From assembly GCA_017560095.1 (NCBI GenBank), contig JAFYOU010000027.1, forward strand, positions 124,001-188,000: 64,000 nt of DNA, read 5' to 3'. Below the pieces are notes generated by a model. It did no database searches. It was given only the letters and a program-made list of their open reading frames with translations, and had not been told where the DNA came from. The position numbers were made by a program, and so were the translations under genes. Positions 29,686 through 60,856 of this stretch are shown piece by piece. Within the stretch, counting starts at the first letter, position 1. Each line of letters starts with the position of its first letter. This stretch comes from Candidatus Gastranaerophilales bacterium (lineage in GTDB: Bacteria > Cyanobacteriota > Vampirovibrionia > Gastranaerophilales > Gastranaerophilaceae).

Positions 29686-30174
29686 ATGAACATTAAAGAT
29701 GCCCAATTAAAAAACAAAAATAAAGCCATTTGGATTGATTCACAAAATTTTTGCCAAGACCTCATATTAAATACGGCGGGTGAAGTCTTAAATAATGGTA
29801 TTAAAATTATTCAATACAATTTCAAAACTGCACCAGACAAACAAAATATTGAGGTTGGAATCAAATTACGTCAACTTTGTTCTATATTTGAAGCGCTTTT
29901 ATTTATCAATTCCAGAGCCGATATTGCACAAATAATTGAAGCTGATGGCTTATGCTTATTTGATGATGATATGTCTTTGAATCAGGCAAGAAAAATTTTT
30001 CATAACGATATAATTTTAGCTAAATATATTGAAACGCAAGAGAATATTACAGAGGCCATTCAAAATAATACGGATATTATTTGTATCAATTCGGCTCATA
30101 AAGCAGCATTAATGAACAATATGGGAACATTAAACAAAGTTAAAATAGTTGAAGTTGATAGGAAATTTATATGA
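29686..30174 (+). CDS. Truncated TenI/ThiE-like (thiamine phosphate synthase family) protein
   Basis: 162 residues from ATG 29686; an upstream reading is not supported by a ribosome site or similarity. The middle matches thiamine phosphate synthase/TenI: KLRQLCSIFEALLFINSRAD then IIEADGLCLFDDDMSLNQAR then IFHNDIILAKYIETQENI, aligning with L-c-x-x-y-x-v-p-l-i-I-N-D-r-v-d, a-D-G-v-H-l-g-q-e-D and i-i-G-v-S-t-h. Key positions differ: the IND aspartate is Ser and GVHLGQ is GLCLFD. The C-terminal phosphate-binding third of the barrel is missing; full enzymes are about 210 residues. It is coupled to a Nudix gene (4-nt overlap). Confidence 0.6.
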   Translation: MNIKDAQLKNKNKAIWIDSQNFCQDLILNTAGEVLNNGIKIIQYNFKTAPDKQNIEVGIKLRQLCSIFEALLFINSRADIAQIIEADGLCLFDDDMSLNQARKIFHNDIILAKYIETQENITEAIQNNTDIICINSAHKAALMNNMGTLNKVKIVEVDRKFI

Positions 30175-30749
30175 CAATAATTTCAAAAACAAAATTTCTT
30201 GAATTTAAATCTGCGAAATCACCGTCTGGCAAAGATTGGTATTATGTTCGAAGAACAAATGATACAAATATGCATGATAGCGCAGTTGTCATCACAACAT
30301 TAGTCAAAAAAGATAATGAATACAACTTTTTACTTTTTAAAACAATACGTCCTCCAATTTCTGCAGAAAAAAAAGCAACTTATTGTCTTGAGTCTGCCGC
30401 AGGATTAATAGGAGACAATGATTGCAATGAAAGCATGCTAGATTGCGCAAAAAAAGAATTACTAGAAGAAACAGGATTAGTGGCAGATAAATTTTACATA
30501 GAGTTAGAAAACTGCTGTACAAGCGCAGGGCTTTCTTCTGAAACACTTTCATATGTAACAGCAATAGTCAATAACTACCAAATAATTCAAAATCCAATCG
30601 ATGACGGTGGAATTATTGTTGATCGTTACCTTGTTCCGGTAACTAAAATTTTAGAACATCTTCAAGAAATTAACAAAAATGAAACATCTGTTGCTGCTGC
30701 AACTGTATGCGGAATATATTATGCAATCAATAGAATAACTAAGCTATAA
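30171..30749 (+). CDS. Nudix hydrolase, ADP-ribose pyrophosphatase-like
   Basis: 192 residues. The Nudix box G-x5-E-x7-R-E-U-x-E-E-x-G-U runs from Gly81 to Leu103 (Glu87, then KELLEETGL at 95-103), with Lys in place of the box Arg. The preceding LESAAGLI and the following CTSAGLSSETLSYVTAIV resemble ADP-ribose pyrophosphatases. It hydrolyses a nucleoside-diphosphate-linked compound; the true substrate is unproven. Start overlaps the TenI-like gene (ATGA), and lepA converges on it with the stop codons adjacent. Confidence 0.88.
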   Translation: MTIISKTKFLEFKSAKSPSGKDWYYVRRTNDTNMHDSAVVITTLVKKDNEYNFLLFKTIRPPISAEKKATYCLESAAGLIGDNDCNESMLDCAKKELLEETGLVADKFYIELENCCTSAGLSSETLSYVTAIVNNYQIIQNPIDDGGIIVDRYLVPVTKILEHLQEINKNETSVAAATVCGIYYAINRITKL

Positions 30750-53530: not shown

Positions 53531-53605
53531 TGGCTGGGGTGAAAGGACTCGAACCTCTGAATGCCTGGACCAAAACCAGGTGCCTTACCACTTGGCGACA
53601 CCCCA
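53531..53605 (-). tRNA. tRNA-Gln (anticodon UUG), CCA encoded
   Basis: Minus strand folds as a full cloverleaf: acceptor TGGGGTG/CACCCCA, D arm with AAGTGGTAAGG, anticodon stem CCTGG/CCAGG around the loop TTTTGGT (anticodon TTG), variable region CATTC, T arm with TTCGAGT, discriminator G and genomically encoded CCA. It has its own terminator and lies 48 nt after the kinase-like gene of the ThiC-like operon. Confidence 0.95.
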
Positions 53606-53653: not shown

Positions 53654-54505
53654 TTATAAACTACATGATTTATCTTTTAAGACAGAAACAATAGCGTCAA
53701 TAAGCTGCTGTACAATATCTTCTATATATGCCTGACTAGTCATGCCATTAATAACAACATCTGCAACATCCATTGAAGGACGAATATGACGAAAAGCAGT
53801 TTGATTAACATCGTGAAATTGCATTTGTGCAGCAAGTCCTGTTTTACCTCTGCTAGTTGCACGTGCAAACCATCTATCTTTAATAACTTCAAACGGAGTA
53901 TAAACATAAATTTTTACATCGGTAATATTTTCAAGTTTTTCATGAAGAACATACAAACCTTCATTTAAAATTAATTTTGCAGGCTTTTTTAAAACAACAT
54001 TCTCTTTACTTTCGCAAGTAACAAAATTATATAATGGAGAATAAATTTCTTCACCATTTTTAAGCTTAATCAAATGTTCGCGCATTAATTCCAAATTAAT
54101 TGCATCAGGGGTATCAAAAGAAAACCCTGATTCAAATAATTTTTCATAACTACCAGCTTCTGTTAATTCCCTTGATGCGTCTTTATAATAATCATCGCAA
54201 CACACAACAGTATATACATCATCAGTATCTGATTTAACACAAGCTTTAGTTGCATTTTTAACTAAAGTAGTTTTCCCGGAAGCGCTTTCACCAGCAATAG
54301 ACAAAATGAAAGTAGAATTTTTATCTTCAATTGCTTTTCTAGCAATATTAAAGATGAATCCCTCATTAATACGAAGTATCAATGGTTGTTTTTGCATTCT
54401 ATCGCTAGCGATGATTTTTCTTATGTTTTCAATAATTTGCGACATTTTAGACATTGAAACCAATCTCTGAGCTTGTCTAATTTGATTTTCACTTAAGTTA
54501 GTCAT
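53654..54505 (-). CDS. Uridine kinase/phosphoribulokinase-family P-loop kinase
   Basis: 283 residues. Walker A GESASGKT (72-79) lies after a ~65-residue N-terminal extension, with VVCCDDYYKDAS (substrate-binding DDYY), FDTPDAINLELMREHL and LILNEGLYVLHEKL following the uridine kinase/PRK pattern. RWFARATSRGKTG resembles the lid Arg motif. Usual uridine kinases are about 210 residues, so the extension is notable. It is the last gene of a minus-strand run (aldolase, ThiC-like, small protein, kinase), so a sugar or nucleoside-like alcohol is the likely phosphate acceptor; uridine itself is not certain. Confidence 0.75.
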   Translation of the reverse strand: MTNLSENQIRQAQRLVSMSKMSQIIENIRKIIASDRMQKQPLILRINEGFIFNIARKAIEDKNSTFILSIAGESASGKTTLVKNATKACVKSDTDDVYTVVCCDDYYKDASRELTEAGSYEKLFESGFSFDTPDAINLELMREHLIKLKNGEEIYSPLYNFVTCESKENVVLKKPAKLILNEGLYVLHEKLENITDVKIYVYTPFEVIKDRWFARATSRGKTGLAAQMQFHDVNQTAFRHIRPSMDVADVVINGMTSQAYIEDIVQQLIDAIVSVLKDKSCSL

Positions 54506-54531
54506 ACTTATAACACATTTCCAAATCTATT

Positions 54532-54783
54532 CTATTCTTCAGACAAAAAACTATCTTCATCATCATTTGCTTCGTTCTCCAAAAGTTTATAAGCCATATA
54601 TGCACCAGTTGCAAGCGCTTTTGGATCAAGCTGAGACTTTTGAGCTAACTCAATAATAGCTGTGTTTAATTCCGGGTTTTCTTCTTTTATATAATGTATC
54701 ATTTCCTTTCTCCAAGCAGGAATGTCGGAAATAATTTCATTAACGGTTTGTTCTACATTTTCTATTGAAATAAGTGGTTGCAT
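54532..54783 (-). CDS. Small acidic protein of unknown function
   Basis: 83 residues, helical and acidic: VEQTVNEIISDIPAWRKEMI, then IIELAQKSQLDPKALATGAY and an Asp/Glu-rich tail (NEANDDEDSFLSEE). Not recognised. It lies between the ThiC-like gene (37 nt away) and the kinase-like gene (26 nt), so it is most likely part of the same transcript. Confidence 0.65.
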   Translation of the reverse strand: MQPLISIENVEQTVNEIISDIPAWRKEMIHYIKEENPELNTAIIELAQKSQLDPKALATGAYMAYKLLENEANDDEDSFLSEE

Positions 54784-54820
54784 ATCTTAATTATATTAAA
54801 ATCCTAACTTATCGTCAATT

Positions 54821-56098
54821 TTATTTAGAAAAATATTTATCAAACAATAACGACATTGAATGATTAGCACACATATACCCCAAATTTCCTTTTGTTGCTA
54901 AATCAATTCCATCAAAAACGGTTTTATCTAAACTATTTTCAATTTGTTTTTGCCAATCATTATTTTTTCTAGCAAATGAAATTTTATAATTTTGAGAAAT
55001 TGCCCCTGAAATACCACGAGCTAAATCTGCACAATGTGCAGCTATTTTTGCACTCATGATTCCTTCTCTAATATGAGCTGGATGAGAAAATCCAATTCTA
55101 TCAACACTTGTTGTAGCTTTTAACATATCTGCTCCTTGATAAGCAGCCAAAGCACCACCAATTGCTGATGAGATATTATCATAACCAACTGCGCAATCAC
55201 AAGCGATTGCACCAGAAACATATAAAGGTGCAAAATCCGAAAGCTCTTTAATATTTTGAACCATCATTGGAATTTTATTTAAAGGTGCTTGTTCAATACC
55301 TTCTATCATAACTTGAACATCCAACTCACGAGCACGAGTTACCAATTCGCCCAAAACTATTGCTTCAGCAACCTCTAAACCATCTGAAGCATCGGTAGTT
55401 GAACCAGATTTAAATGCACTTTGTAATAATAAAGTAACATCATAAGGTTTTACTAAATCCAATAACTCATCGAAATATTCATACAAAGGATTTTCTTTAC
55501 CCGAAGCCTTCATCCAACAAGCCAACATTGTTGCAGCATGAGAAGAAATTGTTGAAAGTCTTTCTTGCTTTTGAAACCTTTTTAATAAATTTTGATTCAA
55601 AGCACAATGCAAGCATATAAAATCAGCTCCATCGCTGCAATGCTTCTCAATAACATTAAATATTTCTTCTTTTGTTAAATTTAAAATATCATTATTTTTA
55701 TTTAAAGCCTCAACACCAGCTTGCACAACAGGCATTGTTCCAACAGGAAGTTTTGAAGCAGATAAAATAGCCTGTCTTGTTTCATCAATCAACTTATTTG
55801 AAGAAAAATCCATTAAAACATGGGCTCCAGCTTGATTGATAACTCGAAGTTTATCTAACTCTGCATCAAGCGAAGTTCTTTTATTGGCAGTATTTATATT
55901 GGCATTAATTTTAACTTTAAGATTTTCGCCAACAGCAACGGGAATTGTATCAATTCGTTTATTGTTTTTCAAAATAACTATTCGTCCATTAGCAATGCCG
56001 TTTCTAATTACTTCGGGCGAAACACATTCTTGTTCGGCACAAAAGCGCATTTCATCTGTTATAATACCGCATTTTGCATCTTGCATTTGTGTTGTCAT
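54821..56098 (-). CDS. ThiC-fold protein lacking the iron-sulfur motif (ThiC paralog)
   Basis: 425 residues from the ATG at 56098, which has GGGAG eight bases upstream; a TTG at 56113 is the alternative. Overall similarity to HMP-P synthase ThiC is unmistakable: TTQMQDAKCGIITDEMRFCA, VKINANIN, VLMDFSSNKLIDETRQAILS, LPVGTMPVVQAGVEAL, VGYDNISSAIGGALAAYQGA, REGIMSAKIAAHCADLARG. However, the C-terminal CxxCxxxxC motif that holds the radical-SAM [4Fe-4S] cluster is absent (one Cys, 410, in GYMCANHSM), and ThiC's SRGGS, DGLRPGS and EGPGHVP are replaced by SSHAA (185-189), SAFKSGS (227-233) and EGIEQAP (266-272). It is unlikely to make HMP-P. Confidence 0.88.
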   Translation of the reverse strand: MTTQMQDAKCGIITDEMRFCAEQECVSPEVIRNGIANGRIVILKNNKRIDTIPVAVGENLKVKINANINTANKRTSLDAELDKLRVINQAGAHVLMDFSSNKLIDETRQAILSASKLPVGTMPVVQAGVEALNKNNDILNLTKEEIFNVIEKHCSDGADFICLHCALNQNLLKRFQKQERLSTISSHAATMLACWMKASGKENPLYEYFDELLDLVKPYDVTLLLQSAFKSGSTTDASDGLEVAEAIVLGELVTRARELDVQVMIEGIEQAPLNKIPMMVQNIKELSDFAPLYVSGAIACDCAVGYDNISSAIGGALAAYQGADMLKATTSVDRIGFSHPAHIREGIMSAKIAAHCADLARGISGAISQNYKISFARKNNDWQKQIENSLDKTVFDGIDLATKGNLGYMCANHSMSLLFDKYFSK

Positions 56099-56113
56099 TT
56101 CTCTTACTCCCAA

Positions 56114-56746
56114 CTACTTTCTATATAATTTCTTTATTTCATTAACATCTTTTTTTGAAATTGCACGAGCACCACCTAAAACCTCTGCTCCAAAATAAGC
56201 TTCAACATATGCCCTAATTAAATCAAGCTTATAATATGCATTCTGCAGACTTGTATCACCTAGGACAATTCCATGGTTTTTTAAAAGCGCAACATTATTT
56301 TGCTTAAAACATTCACCTACACTAGTTGCAAGATCAATGCTTGAAGGACAATGATAAGAAACCAATGGAATTTCATCCCAATAAAGCGCAAAATCAGGTA
56401 AAATTGGTTTTTTAATTGGAACCCCTGCAACGGCAAAAGCTGTAATCATGGGACAATGACAATGAATTATTGCATTAATATCATCTCTATGTGTATAAAT
56501 TTCACTGTGCATTATTTTTTCGCTAGAAGGCTTTTTAGTCCCTTCTTTTACATTTCCATCATAATCAATTAAAACAATGTCGTTTTCATCCATATCATTT
56601 AAGCAACAACCGCTTGCACTAATCATAATTCCATCTTTAGTCTTAATTGAAATATTTCCGCTGGTAGCCGGACTCATTCCACGCTGATATAAACGTTTCG
56701 ACCAATATAAAATACTTTTTTTTGCGTCGGTATCCAAAAATTCCAT
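56114..56746 (-). CDS. Class II aldolase/adducin-family protein
   Basis: 210 residues, the size of L-fuculose-1-phosphate aldolase. The zinc site is complete: Glu76 (SSEKIMHSEIY), His95 and His97 (AIIHCHCPMITAF) and His158 (LLKNHGIVLGD). ATSGNISIKTKDGIMISASG binds the substrate phosphate. It could be an aldolase, epimerase or dehydratase (MtnB-like) acting on a phosphorylated sugar. The next gene, ThiC-like, starts 15 nt after its stop. It is first in the run and divergent from ispH. Confidence 0.9.
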   Translation of the reverse strand: MEFLDTDAKKSILYWSKRLYQRGMSPATSGNISIKTKDGIMISASGCCLNDMDENDIVLIDYDGNVKEGTKKPSSEKIMHSEIYTHRDDINAIIHCHCPMITAFAVAGVPIKKPILPDFALYWDEIPLVSYHCPSSIDLATSVGECFKQNNVALLKNHGIVLGDTSLQNAYYKLDLIRAYVEAYFGAEVLGGARAISKKDVNEIKKLYRK

Positions 56747-58859: not shown

Positions 58860-58966
58860 AATGCAAATTTTATTGGATTGTAAAATTCTTATAACATCTT
58901 TGATTATATTGAAAATAATTGATATATTTTAATATAAATGTGAATTAATAAATCATGGGGTTAACT

Positions 58967-60856
58967 ATGCTTTTTAAACGCAAATATCGCAATGGCTTTT
59001 CGCTTGTCGAAATGATGGTTTCATTTGTAATTATATGTGTAATCGCAACAGCACTTACTCCAATTATAACAAAAAAAATGAAAAGCGCTACAGTTGCAAT
59101 AGATACTGAAGGCGATTTTATTACAAACTGCACAGATAAATTTTCAAGTTCATGTGCATTATGCACAACAAATAAATGCGTCATTTGCAACAAAGAATGC
59201 CCAAATGATCAAACATTAGATTATGATTACTGTACATGTAGCTCTTGTGTGACATCTTTTGGAGCAAATTGTCTTGAATGCAGTGAAACAAATTGTACAA
59301 GATGTAAAAATGAATATTTTACAAATAATGGAACATGTGAAATTTGCCCTGTCGGGTATTACTGCGATGGAATTAACAAAACAATATGTCCAGAAGGTCA
59401 ATATAATGAAGAAACTGGTCAAACAACATGCCTAGATTGTCCAATTGGCTATTACTGCACCAATGGCGAAAAAAAAGCATGTGAAGCTGGAACATATTCA
59501 ACAGGAAAAGCGAGCGAATGTATAACGTGTCCAGTAGGACATAAATGCATTGGTGGCAGTGATAAAACGAAATGTACAGGTGCCGAATATCAAAGTGCAA
59601 CAGGACAATCAGCTTGTCAGTTATGTGCAGCAGGCAACTATGTTATTGATGCAAGAGTTATATGCGCGTCTTGCACAACAGGTAATAAGTGCACCGGGGA
59701 TGGAACACAAACTTTATGCTCAACAGGAGCCGAATATCAAAATGAATCAGGAAAATCAACATGTAAAACATGCGGTGCAGGCTATTATGTTTCAAGCGAT
59801 AGAAAATCATGTAACACTTGCACTGTAGGCAATAAATGTACTGGCAACGGGTTACAAACGGCTTGCAATAATTCATCGGGTACAGCAGGAAACCAATATC
59901 AAGATCAAGAAGGTCAATCCACATGCAAAACATGCACTACAGGAATTGTAGGTGCCAACGGTGCAACATGTCATGCATGTACGGATGGCACATATCTTTC
60001 AAGCGGCAACTGCGTGAATTGCCCTGGAGGATATTATTGCAACAATGGCACTCCAAAACAATGCTGGGCAAACTCATCACCAAATGCAAACAGTGGAGCA
60101 ACTAACTGTGTTTGTAATGCAGGATATTATCTAAGCGAAACAAAAACATGCTCAACTTGCTCATCAAAAACAGAACACTGCGCTACATGTAACGTAACGG
60201 ATGGAACCTGCTTATCTTGTGAAGATGGATACACCTTGTCAGATGAAAATGAATGCAAGTTGCCTTGTAAGGATTATGCAACAGTTATTGAAACAAACGG
60301 GACAAAACTATGCATGACGACATACAATATTGGAGATGCAAGCTCATTAACAATTCCTGCCTCGGTAAACAATGCCAATGTAGATATGGGTGACTATTGT
60401 GACCCAACAGAAGAGCTATGTTGTTGGAGTGGAACAACGGCAGATGAATGCGATGACGGAAGTGTTGATTACTCAGGATGCGAAAGAACAGTTTGCGACT
60501 ATAATGCCGCAGAAGAAATATGCTCTAGATTAACATATTTAGGAAGAAGTTGGAGATTACCTACTGTGGCCGAAATAAGTAGTCAGCCTACTAACACTAT
60601 TGGTTCAAGCTTAAATTTCTGTGACGAATACTCGGGTTATAGTTATCATACTGCACAATGTGCAATGTCATTTAATTGCTCGGGCGCAGACTCAGACGAA
60701 TGTCACCCAAACTACGTTTGGGGTCAGGGTTTTTACAGCGCAGGAGTATTATATGCTAATTATTTCCAATACAGCAACGGATCCCTATCACAAGTTCAAC
60801 ACGATATTTCAGGAGAAGCGCCAGCAGCAAGCGTGCGCTGTGTATCAGATTATTAA
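58967..60856 (+). CDS. Type IV pilin-like N-terminus fused to a Cys-rich stalk and Lcl-type C-terminal domain
   Basis: 629 residues from ATG 58967 (GGGG upstream; an ATG four codons earlier is possible). The leader MLFKRKYRNG is followed by FSLVEMMVSFVIICVIATAL, a class III prepilin signal with cleavage after Gly10 and Glu at +5. Residues ~45-440 are a string of cysteine-rich units (CPVGYYCDG, CPIGYYCTNG, CPGGYYCNNG, with C-x2-C and C-x5/6-C spacing) resembling furin/GCC2-GCC3/EGF-like receptor repeats. The C-terminus, CSRLTYLGRSWRLPTVAEI, matches the DUF1566/Lcl pattern. It is probably exported by type IV pilus or type II machinery and disulfide-rich outside the cell. No other pilus genes are nearby. 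Confidence 0.85.
   Translation: MLFKRKYRNGFSLVEMMVSFVIICVIATALTPIITKKMKSATVAIDTEGDFITNCTDKFSSSCALCTTNKCVICNKECPNDQTLDYDYCTCSSCVTSFGANCLECSETNCTRCKNEYFTNNGTCEICPVGYYCDGINKTICPEGQYNEETGQTTCLDCPIGYYCTNGEKKACEAGTYSTGKASECITCPVGHKCIGGSDKTKCTGAEYQSATGQSACQLCAAGNYVIDARVICASCTTGNKCTGDGTQTLCSTGAEYQNESGKSTCKTCGAGYYVSSDRKSCNTCTVGNKCTGNGLQTACNNSSGTAGNQYQDQEGQSTCKTCTTGIVGANGATCHACTDGTYLSSGNCVNCPGGYYCNNGTPKQCWANSSPNANSGATNCVCNAGYYLSETKTCSTCSSKTEHCATCNVTDGTCLSCEDGYTLSDENECKLPCKDYATVIETNGTKLCMTTYNIGDASSLTIPASVNNANVDMGDYCDPTEELCCWSGTTADECDDGSVDYSGCERTVCDYNAAEEICSRLTYLGRSWRLPTVAEISSQPTNTIGSSLNFCDEYSGYSYHTAQCAMSFNCSGADSDECHPNYVWGQGFYSAGVLYANYFQYSNGSLSQVQHDISGEAPAASVRCVSDY

What the first reader, a model, noticed from the sequence alone, without database searches (positions are those of the whole stretch)
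53654..56746. Four-gene operon built around a ThiC-fold protein without its iron-sulfur cluster
The 425-residue protein at 54821-56098 keeps ThiC's backbone pattern over its whole length but lacks the C-terminal CxxCxxxxC cluster motif and the SRGG, DGLRPG and EGPGH motifs that ThiC uses for radical chemistry, substrate and metal. The frame is intact and well conserved elsewhere, which argues for a new function rather than decay. It sits between a class II aldolase with all metal ligands and an uncharacterised small protein plus a uridine-kinase/PRK-type kinase. Known ThiC relatives that changed function (BzaA/B/F for benzimidazole) keep the cluster, so this looks distinct. An aldolase, a barrel enzyme and a kinase suggest a small pathway on a phosphosugar or nucleotide.
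Basis: partly seen in the sequence, partly recalled or inferred. Interest (0 to 1): 0.78.

Follow-up and report, generated by a model that had tools for sequence, protein, structure and literature searches.

The report
Dead vitamin-B1 enzyme kept by selection
In a group of gut bacteria that seem to have lost the ability to make vitamin B1, the gene for its pyrimidine-making enzyme has lost its catalytic parts yet is still kept intact by natural selection, which suggests that the protein now does another, unknown job.

Summary

It is the ortholog, in the same four-gene order, of intact ThiC in sister species. Of 29 genomes of the genus, 12 have intact ThiC, 11 a dead one, 6 none (in 2 of the 6 the locus is missing from the assembly). 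ThiG, PurM (makes ThiC's substrate AIR) and strong full-length ThiE were found in exactly those 12.

It does not look like a pseudogene. All 11 frames are open. Two species sharing the dead state differ by 13, 3.5 and 35% at codon positions 1, 2, 3 (dN/dS 0.02, at most about 0.2). Pooled, active-site residues are lost more than other invariant ones (36 against 59% kept). A shortened ThiE also persists elsewhere in 8 of the 11 genomes.

Best reading: a ThiC pseudoenzyme kept for a non-radical, non-thiamine role that is not yet shown. The proposed aldolase-kinase pathway is not supported.

The parts
54821..56098 (-). Catalytically dead ThiC (pseudo-ThiC), 425 aa from ATG; an upstream TTG would extend it to 56113
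56114..56746 (-). Class II aldolase, FucA/DrdA-like, directly upstream of thiC; His95, His97, His158 and Glu76 invariant (their roles recalled)
   Evidence: PF00596 E 1.9e-41; alignment of 17; nearest solved structures 4c25, 4c24, 6btd; next to ThiC in 23 of 23 genus genomes with ThiC and in G030, in G300 and in 4 of 14 other family genomes read
54532..54783 (-). Small four-helix protein of unknown function, pairs with the kinase
   Evidence: No Pfam/NCBIfam match; before the kinase in 20 of 21 more distant loci without ThiC in the DNA held (L120-L140); AF2 pLDDT 90; no PDB fold match with E<=0.001
53654..54505 (-). Uridine-kinase/PRK-type P-loop kinase, very conserved
   Evidence: PF00485 E 2.8e-24; 74-90% identical to 15 genus copies; present with and without ThiC
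29686..30174 (+). Shortened ThiE (162 aa): ThiD2 part and the last third of the TMP-synthase domain missing; stop overlaps the next start; second remnant of the lost thiamine pathway, 25 kb from thiC
   Evidence: PF02581 E 4.5e-19 over profile 8-121 of 180; strong ThiE in the 12 canonical genomes
30171..30749 (+). NUDIX-like gene downstream of the ThiE remnant (Pfam match below cut-off), also next to ThiE in the canonical genomes read
   Evidence: PF00293 18.1 of 21.1 bits; neighbour in 6 of 6 canonical loci

Best explanation
The protein is a pseudoenzyme: the syntenic ortholog of a working ThiC. Lineages of this genus without PurM (hence, by inference, without AIR, the substrate of ThiC) and without ThiG no longer make thiamine by this route. 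Their ThiC lost AIR-binding residues, a metal ligand, mostly the catalytic cysteine and mostly the cluster tail, but the scaffold stayed under purifying selection. Shown by sequence: orthology, loss of active-site residues, the match with ThiG/PurM/ThiE presence, selection on the protein. Inferred: no radical-SAM activity. Inferred and weak (about 0.2): that it now acts through protein contact, as a structural or regulatory subunit, with the adjacent class II aldolase as first candidate partner.
Against: Four genomes have cleanly lost the gene, so the role is dispensable in some. Dead copies are less constrained than intact ones (dN/dS of intact pairs 0.003-0.012; G000-G018 only 62% identical). 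The window copy alone does not show active-site loss beyond chance (8 of 19 kept, p 0.08). Pockets differ between dead copies, so no single new function is evident. No partner, ligand or expression is shown. dS is saturated for most pairs; for dead ThiC only G003-G009 gives a usable estimate. All genomes are drafts.
Confidence: 0.75

Rival explanations
1. The protein is a new enzyme: the barrel pocket has been remodelled for non-radical chemistry on another small ligand.
For: Position 266 is acidic (E 9, D 3) in 12 of 12 dead copies, 293 aromatic in 12 of 12, 186 S/T in 11 of 12, and His270 kept in 8 of 12, so the pocket is not wholly abandoned; purifying selection.
Against: Other pocket residues differ between lineages; the only changes shared by most are Y209F (11 of 11 in the genus and G030) and G228A (9 of 12). 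Segments 226-250, 326-350 and 401-425, which hold catalytic motifs, are among the four least retained.
Confidence: 0.2
2. It is a slowly decaying relic of thiamine synthesis with no function.
For: Catalytic segments and C terminus erode, ThiE is shortened in parallel, and 4 genomes lost thiC outright.
Against: No stop inside the 11 genus copies; second codon positions ten times less changed than third between two dead copies; neutral simulation fills with stops. In the order sample 295 of 383 genomes have no ThiC match at all rather than a relic.
Confidence: 0.12
3. Only the open frame matters: thiC and thiE remnants are kept as translated spacers so that downstream genes are translated.
For: Both remnants lie upstream of conserved genes with short or overlapping junctions.
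Against: Predicts free amino-acid change, but dN/dS is far below 1; four genomes do without thiC in the same gene order.
Confidence: 0.04
4. Origin differs: the dead form is an old allele or paralogue that split off before the intact ThiCs of the genus, rather than the product of several independent losses. (An alternative on origin; compatible with the best explanation.)
For: Intact genus ThiCs share states that most dead ones lack (e.g. Q153 in 12 of 12; H in 9 of 11 dead and 10 of 14 outgroup copies), and Y209F is in every dead copy. One group of the 12 intact genomes in the species tree is not rejected (p-AU 0.11, 1000 replicates, flagged as too few).
Against: Best species trees put intact genomes in three places, though backbone supports are low.
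Confidence: 0.3

Closest known systems
ThiC (phosphomethylpyrimidine synthase), e.g. Arabidopsis 4s26, Caulobacter 3epm
   Same: Fold over the whole length, gene position, orthology to intact ThiC of sister species
   Different: AIR-binding, metal, catalytic Cys and [4Fe-4S] ligands lost; no ThiG, PurM or full-length ThiE found in the genome
BzaA/BzaB/BzaF (benzimidazole synthases of the ThiC family)
   Same: ThiC relatives with another role
   Different: Those keep radical chemistry (recalled; that BzaF converts AIR to hydroxybenzimidazole is in a passage of PMC11117688); here the residues are gone. BzaB model 409 bits, cut-off 700
DrdA / fuculose-1-phosphate aldolase (neighbour gene)
   Same: Class II aldolase; DrdA acts in salvage of 5-deoxyribose, a by-product of radical SAM enzymes (PMC6079011: start of abstract and passages seen)
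   Different: The kinase in the operon is of uridine-kinase type, not 5-methylthioribose-kinase type as in that paper's clusters; the aldolase persists without working ThiC
Nudix-ThiE model PRK08999 (NF006530)
   Same: A ThiE-like part associated with a NUDIX (that it is a fusion is recalled); matches the ThiE remnant weakly, E 3.5e-4
   Different: Separate genes here; ThiE shortened

Membership tests
ThiC family (PF01964), by descent | Full-length homology and fold | tested here: met
Functional ThiC | C-terminal cluster cysteines | tested here: not met
   G, C, S at the three places in the window protein
Functional ThiC | AIR-binding residues (positions recalled from annotation of E. coli ThiC, mapped by motif) | tested here: not met
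   7 of 14 kept; Tyr125, Arg187, Gly188, Asp227, Gly228, Leu229 and Arg230 changed in the window protein
Functional ThiC | Mononuclear metal histidines (positions recalled) and catalytic Cys474 of Caulobacter (PMC11117688, passages) | tested here: not met
   Q, R and K at these places in the window protein
Functional ThiC | HMP-P formation from AIR | not testable with these tools
   needs assay
BzaB | Score over the BzaB model cut-off | tested here: not met
   409.3 bits, cut-off 700
BzaA, BzaF | Match to models of these proteins and their gene clusters | not tested
   no such model appeared among the matches; clusters were not sought
Pseudogene | Frame disruption and dN/dS near 1 | tested here: not met
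Pseudoenzyme | Enzyme fold, lost catalytic residues, maintained by selection | tested here: met
Pseudoenzyme | Lack of the ancestral activity | not testable with these tools
   needs assay

The most novel reading that the evidence does not exclude
ThiC and ThiE of this family had a second, non-catalytic job all along. When purine and thiamine synthesis were lost, perhaps repeatedly, the two enzymes were stripped to that hidden function: a dead full-length ThiC and a shortened ThiE, both under selection, as a natural dissection of moonlighting in a core vitamin pathway.
Probability: 0.25. Interest if true: 0.82.

Novelty: new variant of a known kind. Interest (0 to 1): 0.6.

Why it matters
ThiC is a very conserved radical enzyme and, as far as I recall, its known derivatives keep the radical machinery. 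A selected ThiC without it, with intact orthologs at the same locus in sister species, gives matched pairs for asking what a vitamin enzyme does besides catalysis. It also warns annotation: by score the window protein passes PF01964 and one ThiC model (NF009895), so genome-based vitamin surveys could take these likely auxotrophs for makers of the thiamine pyrimidine.

Tried and rejected
Hidden frameshift or second ThiC: none. TPP riboswitch: none in the window at gathering score and 0 of 59 genomes, own included, with stricter filters. ThiD: PF08543 gives only weak hits (best E 1.4e-8) in 29 of 29 genomes, which I take for ribokinase-type proteins; ThiD2 is fused to ThiE in the one canonical copy scanned. 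Thiamine pyrophosphokinase PF04263: 0 of 29. Genome-contig scan with the ThiC protein gave nothing; the kinase alignment gave 46 named loci. Codon models in IQ-TREE printed no omega, so I wrote a pairwise codon likelihood; for most pairs dS ran to its limit and only the test against dN/dS=1 is used. Species trees and AU tests (1000 replicates, flagged as too few) do not settle one or several losses; in the thiC gene tree, grouping G010 with G028, sisters at 93% in the species tree, has p-AU 0.09. G064 and G381 are another ThiC-like kind that keeps CTMCGxFC. By-product salvage as the operon's meaning fits the intact ancestors only. Small protein: no PDB fold match with E<=0.001. Literature: searches showed, in the titles and abstract starts listed (13 of 13, 15 of 881, 2 of 2, 15 of 23, 12 of 93, 8 of 369, 0 of 0 papers), nothing on a dead ThiC or on thiamine synthesis in Gastranaerophilales; the library lacks most subscription journals, so this is weak.

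Full report
WHAT IS THERE. The open frame 54821-56113 (minus strand; ATG start at 56098 gives 425 residues) matches Pfam ThiC_Rad_SAM along its length with E 2.2e-127. It scores 418 bits with one ThiC model (cut-off 410) and misses three others, including BzaB (409 of 700). Its neighbours are a class II aldolase, an 83-residue protein without family match and a uridine-kinase/PRK type kinase. In the genome G000 (2.07 Mb draft, 58 contigs, 98.7% complete, 7% contamination) no other ThiC was found.

SAME LOCUS, INTACT AND DEAD. Within the genus (28 further genomes), ThiC scores fall in two groups, 586-605 and 288-514 bits, one copy per genome, no stops inside. I call the first intact (12 genomes: G001, 2, 4, 10, 14, 17, 19, 20, 21, 22, 24, 26) and the second dead (11 with the window: G000, 3, 7, 9, 11, 12, 13, 16, 18, 25, 28). 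Six have none. In 23 of 23 genomes with ThiC the order is aldolase-thiC-small protein-kinase. Intact copies keep 19 of 19 positions that I took as active site; the window copy keeps 8, the other ten and G030 of another genus keep 3 to 14. The positions come from recalled annotation, mapped by motif. Passages of PMC11117688 state the CX2CX4C cluster, a mononuclear iron site, Glu413 and Cys474 in Caulobacter ThiC; the Glu-Cys spacing of 61 agrees with my mapping. In these 12 dead copies Asp227 and metal ligand His334 are lost in 12, the catalytic cysteine in 10; two (G028, G016) still have the three cluster cysteines. So cluster loss is not universal.

WHY IT DIED. ThiG is found at E <= 2.9e-96 in exactly the 12 intact genomes and not in the other 17 of the genus. 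PurM, which makes AIR, is found at E <= 5.5e-68 in exactly the same 12; in the others only three weak hits at the places of ThiL. G010's PurM lies just under the curated cut-off. Strong ThiE (E <= 1.7e-64) is in the same 12, fused to ThiD2 in the copy scanned. Absence rests on draft genomes; 14 of the 17 are over 90% complete. ThiL is present in 29 of 29.

NOT A PSEUDOGENE. G003 and G009 carry nearly identical dead sites and the same truncated C terminus, so I take them to have diverged after the loss. Their ThiC is 86% identical; a NUDIX-like gene elsewhere in the genome is 83%, the aldolase and kinase 95%. Codon positions differ by 0.127, 0.035 and 0.352. Pairwise codon likelihood gives dN/dS 0.017 with dS about 4. 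With the lowest dS found for this pair (0.37, part of rpoB) it would be about 0.19. dN/dS of 1 is rejected (2dlnL 405). For G000-G018 (62% identity) dS is saturated and the test gives 391. Intact pairs have 0.003-0.012, so the dead form is less constrained. Random drift of an intact thiC leaves 3 of 200 stop-free copies at 0.05 substitutions per site and 0 of 200 at 0.1.

A SECOND REMNANT. In the window, 29686-30174 encodes a 162-residue piece of ThiE without ThiD2 and without the last third of the TMP-synthase domain. Residues that I recall as needed for catalysis (YREK, TPTK regions) are changed or gone. Shortened ThiE frames were aligned from 12 further genus genomes without ThiG; G023 keeps nearly the whole domain; the NUDIX-like gene follows in 11 of the 12 (not found in G013). 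G009 has a hit at a contig end and my script recovered no frame; G011 and G016 show no match, G027 only a marginal one. Of the 11 dead-ThiC genomes, 8 thus have an aligned shortened ThiE. Twelve columns are kept in at least 12 of 13 copies. dN/dS of 1 is rejected for G000-G018 (2dlnL 100) and G013-G015 (93), with dS saturated.

THE NEIGHBOURS. The small protein precedes the kinase in 20 of 21 more distant named loci, without ThiC in the DNA held (L120-L140). The aldolase-thiC pair occurs with high-scoring ThiC in 4 of 14 other family genomes read and with truncated ThiC in G030 and G300. So the operon seems to join two older pairs. In G005, G006, G008 and G023 the aldolase is followed directly by the small protein. 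For G015 and G027 the locus was not found. The aldolase resembles fuculose-phosphate aldolase and 6btd (DrdA by recall). Salvage of the deoxyribose by-product of ThiC could explain the old pairing, but not its persistence.

ORIGIN. Trees from 7 and 11 genes have weak backbones; intact genomes fall in three places, but a single group is not rejected (p-AU 0.11). In ThiC itself intact copies share states that most dead ones lack. Repeated loss and one old split both remain open.

HOW FAR IT GOES. In a sample of 383 genomes of the order, 88 have a ThiC match. Low-scoring copies of this kind were seen in this genus and in G030 and G300. Of the other low scorers, G064 and G381 are a different kind; G053, G291 and G308 are partial matches that I did not read.

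VERDICT. A selected pseudoenzyme derived from ThiC, with unknown present role.

Noticed in passing
29686-30174: Shortened ThiE before a NUDIX-like gene, under apparent purifying selection in relatives; a second remnant of the lost thiamine pathway.
   Followed up: partly
genus-wide (29 genomes): ThiL is found in 29 of 29 genomes, PF04263 thiamine pyrophosphokinase in none; 17 genomes also lack ThiG and strong full-length ThiE. Where they get thiamine monophosphate is unclear.
   Followed up: partly
58955-60856: 633-residue protein with a type IV pilin-like start (FSLVEMMVSFVIICVIATALTPII) followed by long cysteine-rich repeats; read by eye only.
   Followed up: no
L215, L216 (G381, G064): Another ThiC-like protein that keeps SRGG and CTMCGxFC but starts 33-47 positions into the ThiC profile; possibly of benzimidazole type.
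   Followed up: partly
54532-54783: Conserved 83-residue four-helix protein paired with the kinase, without family match or PDB fold match at E<=0.001.
   Followed up: partly
53534-53605: tRNA gene on the minus strand just downstream of the operon (Rfam RF00005).
   Followed up: no
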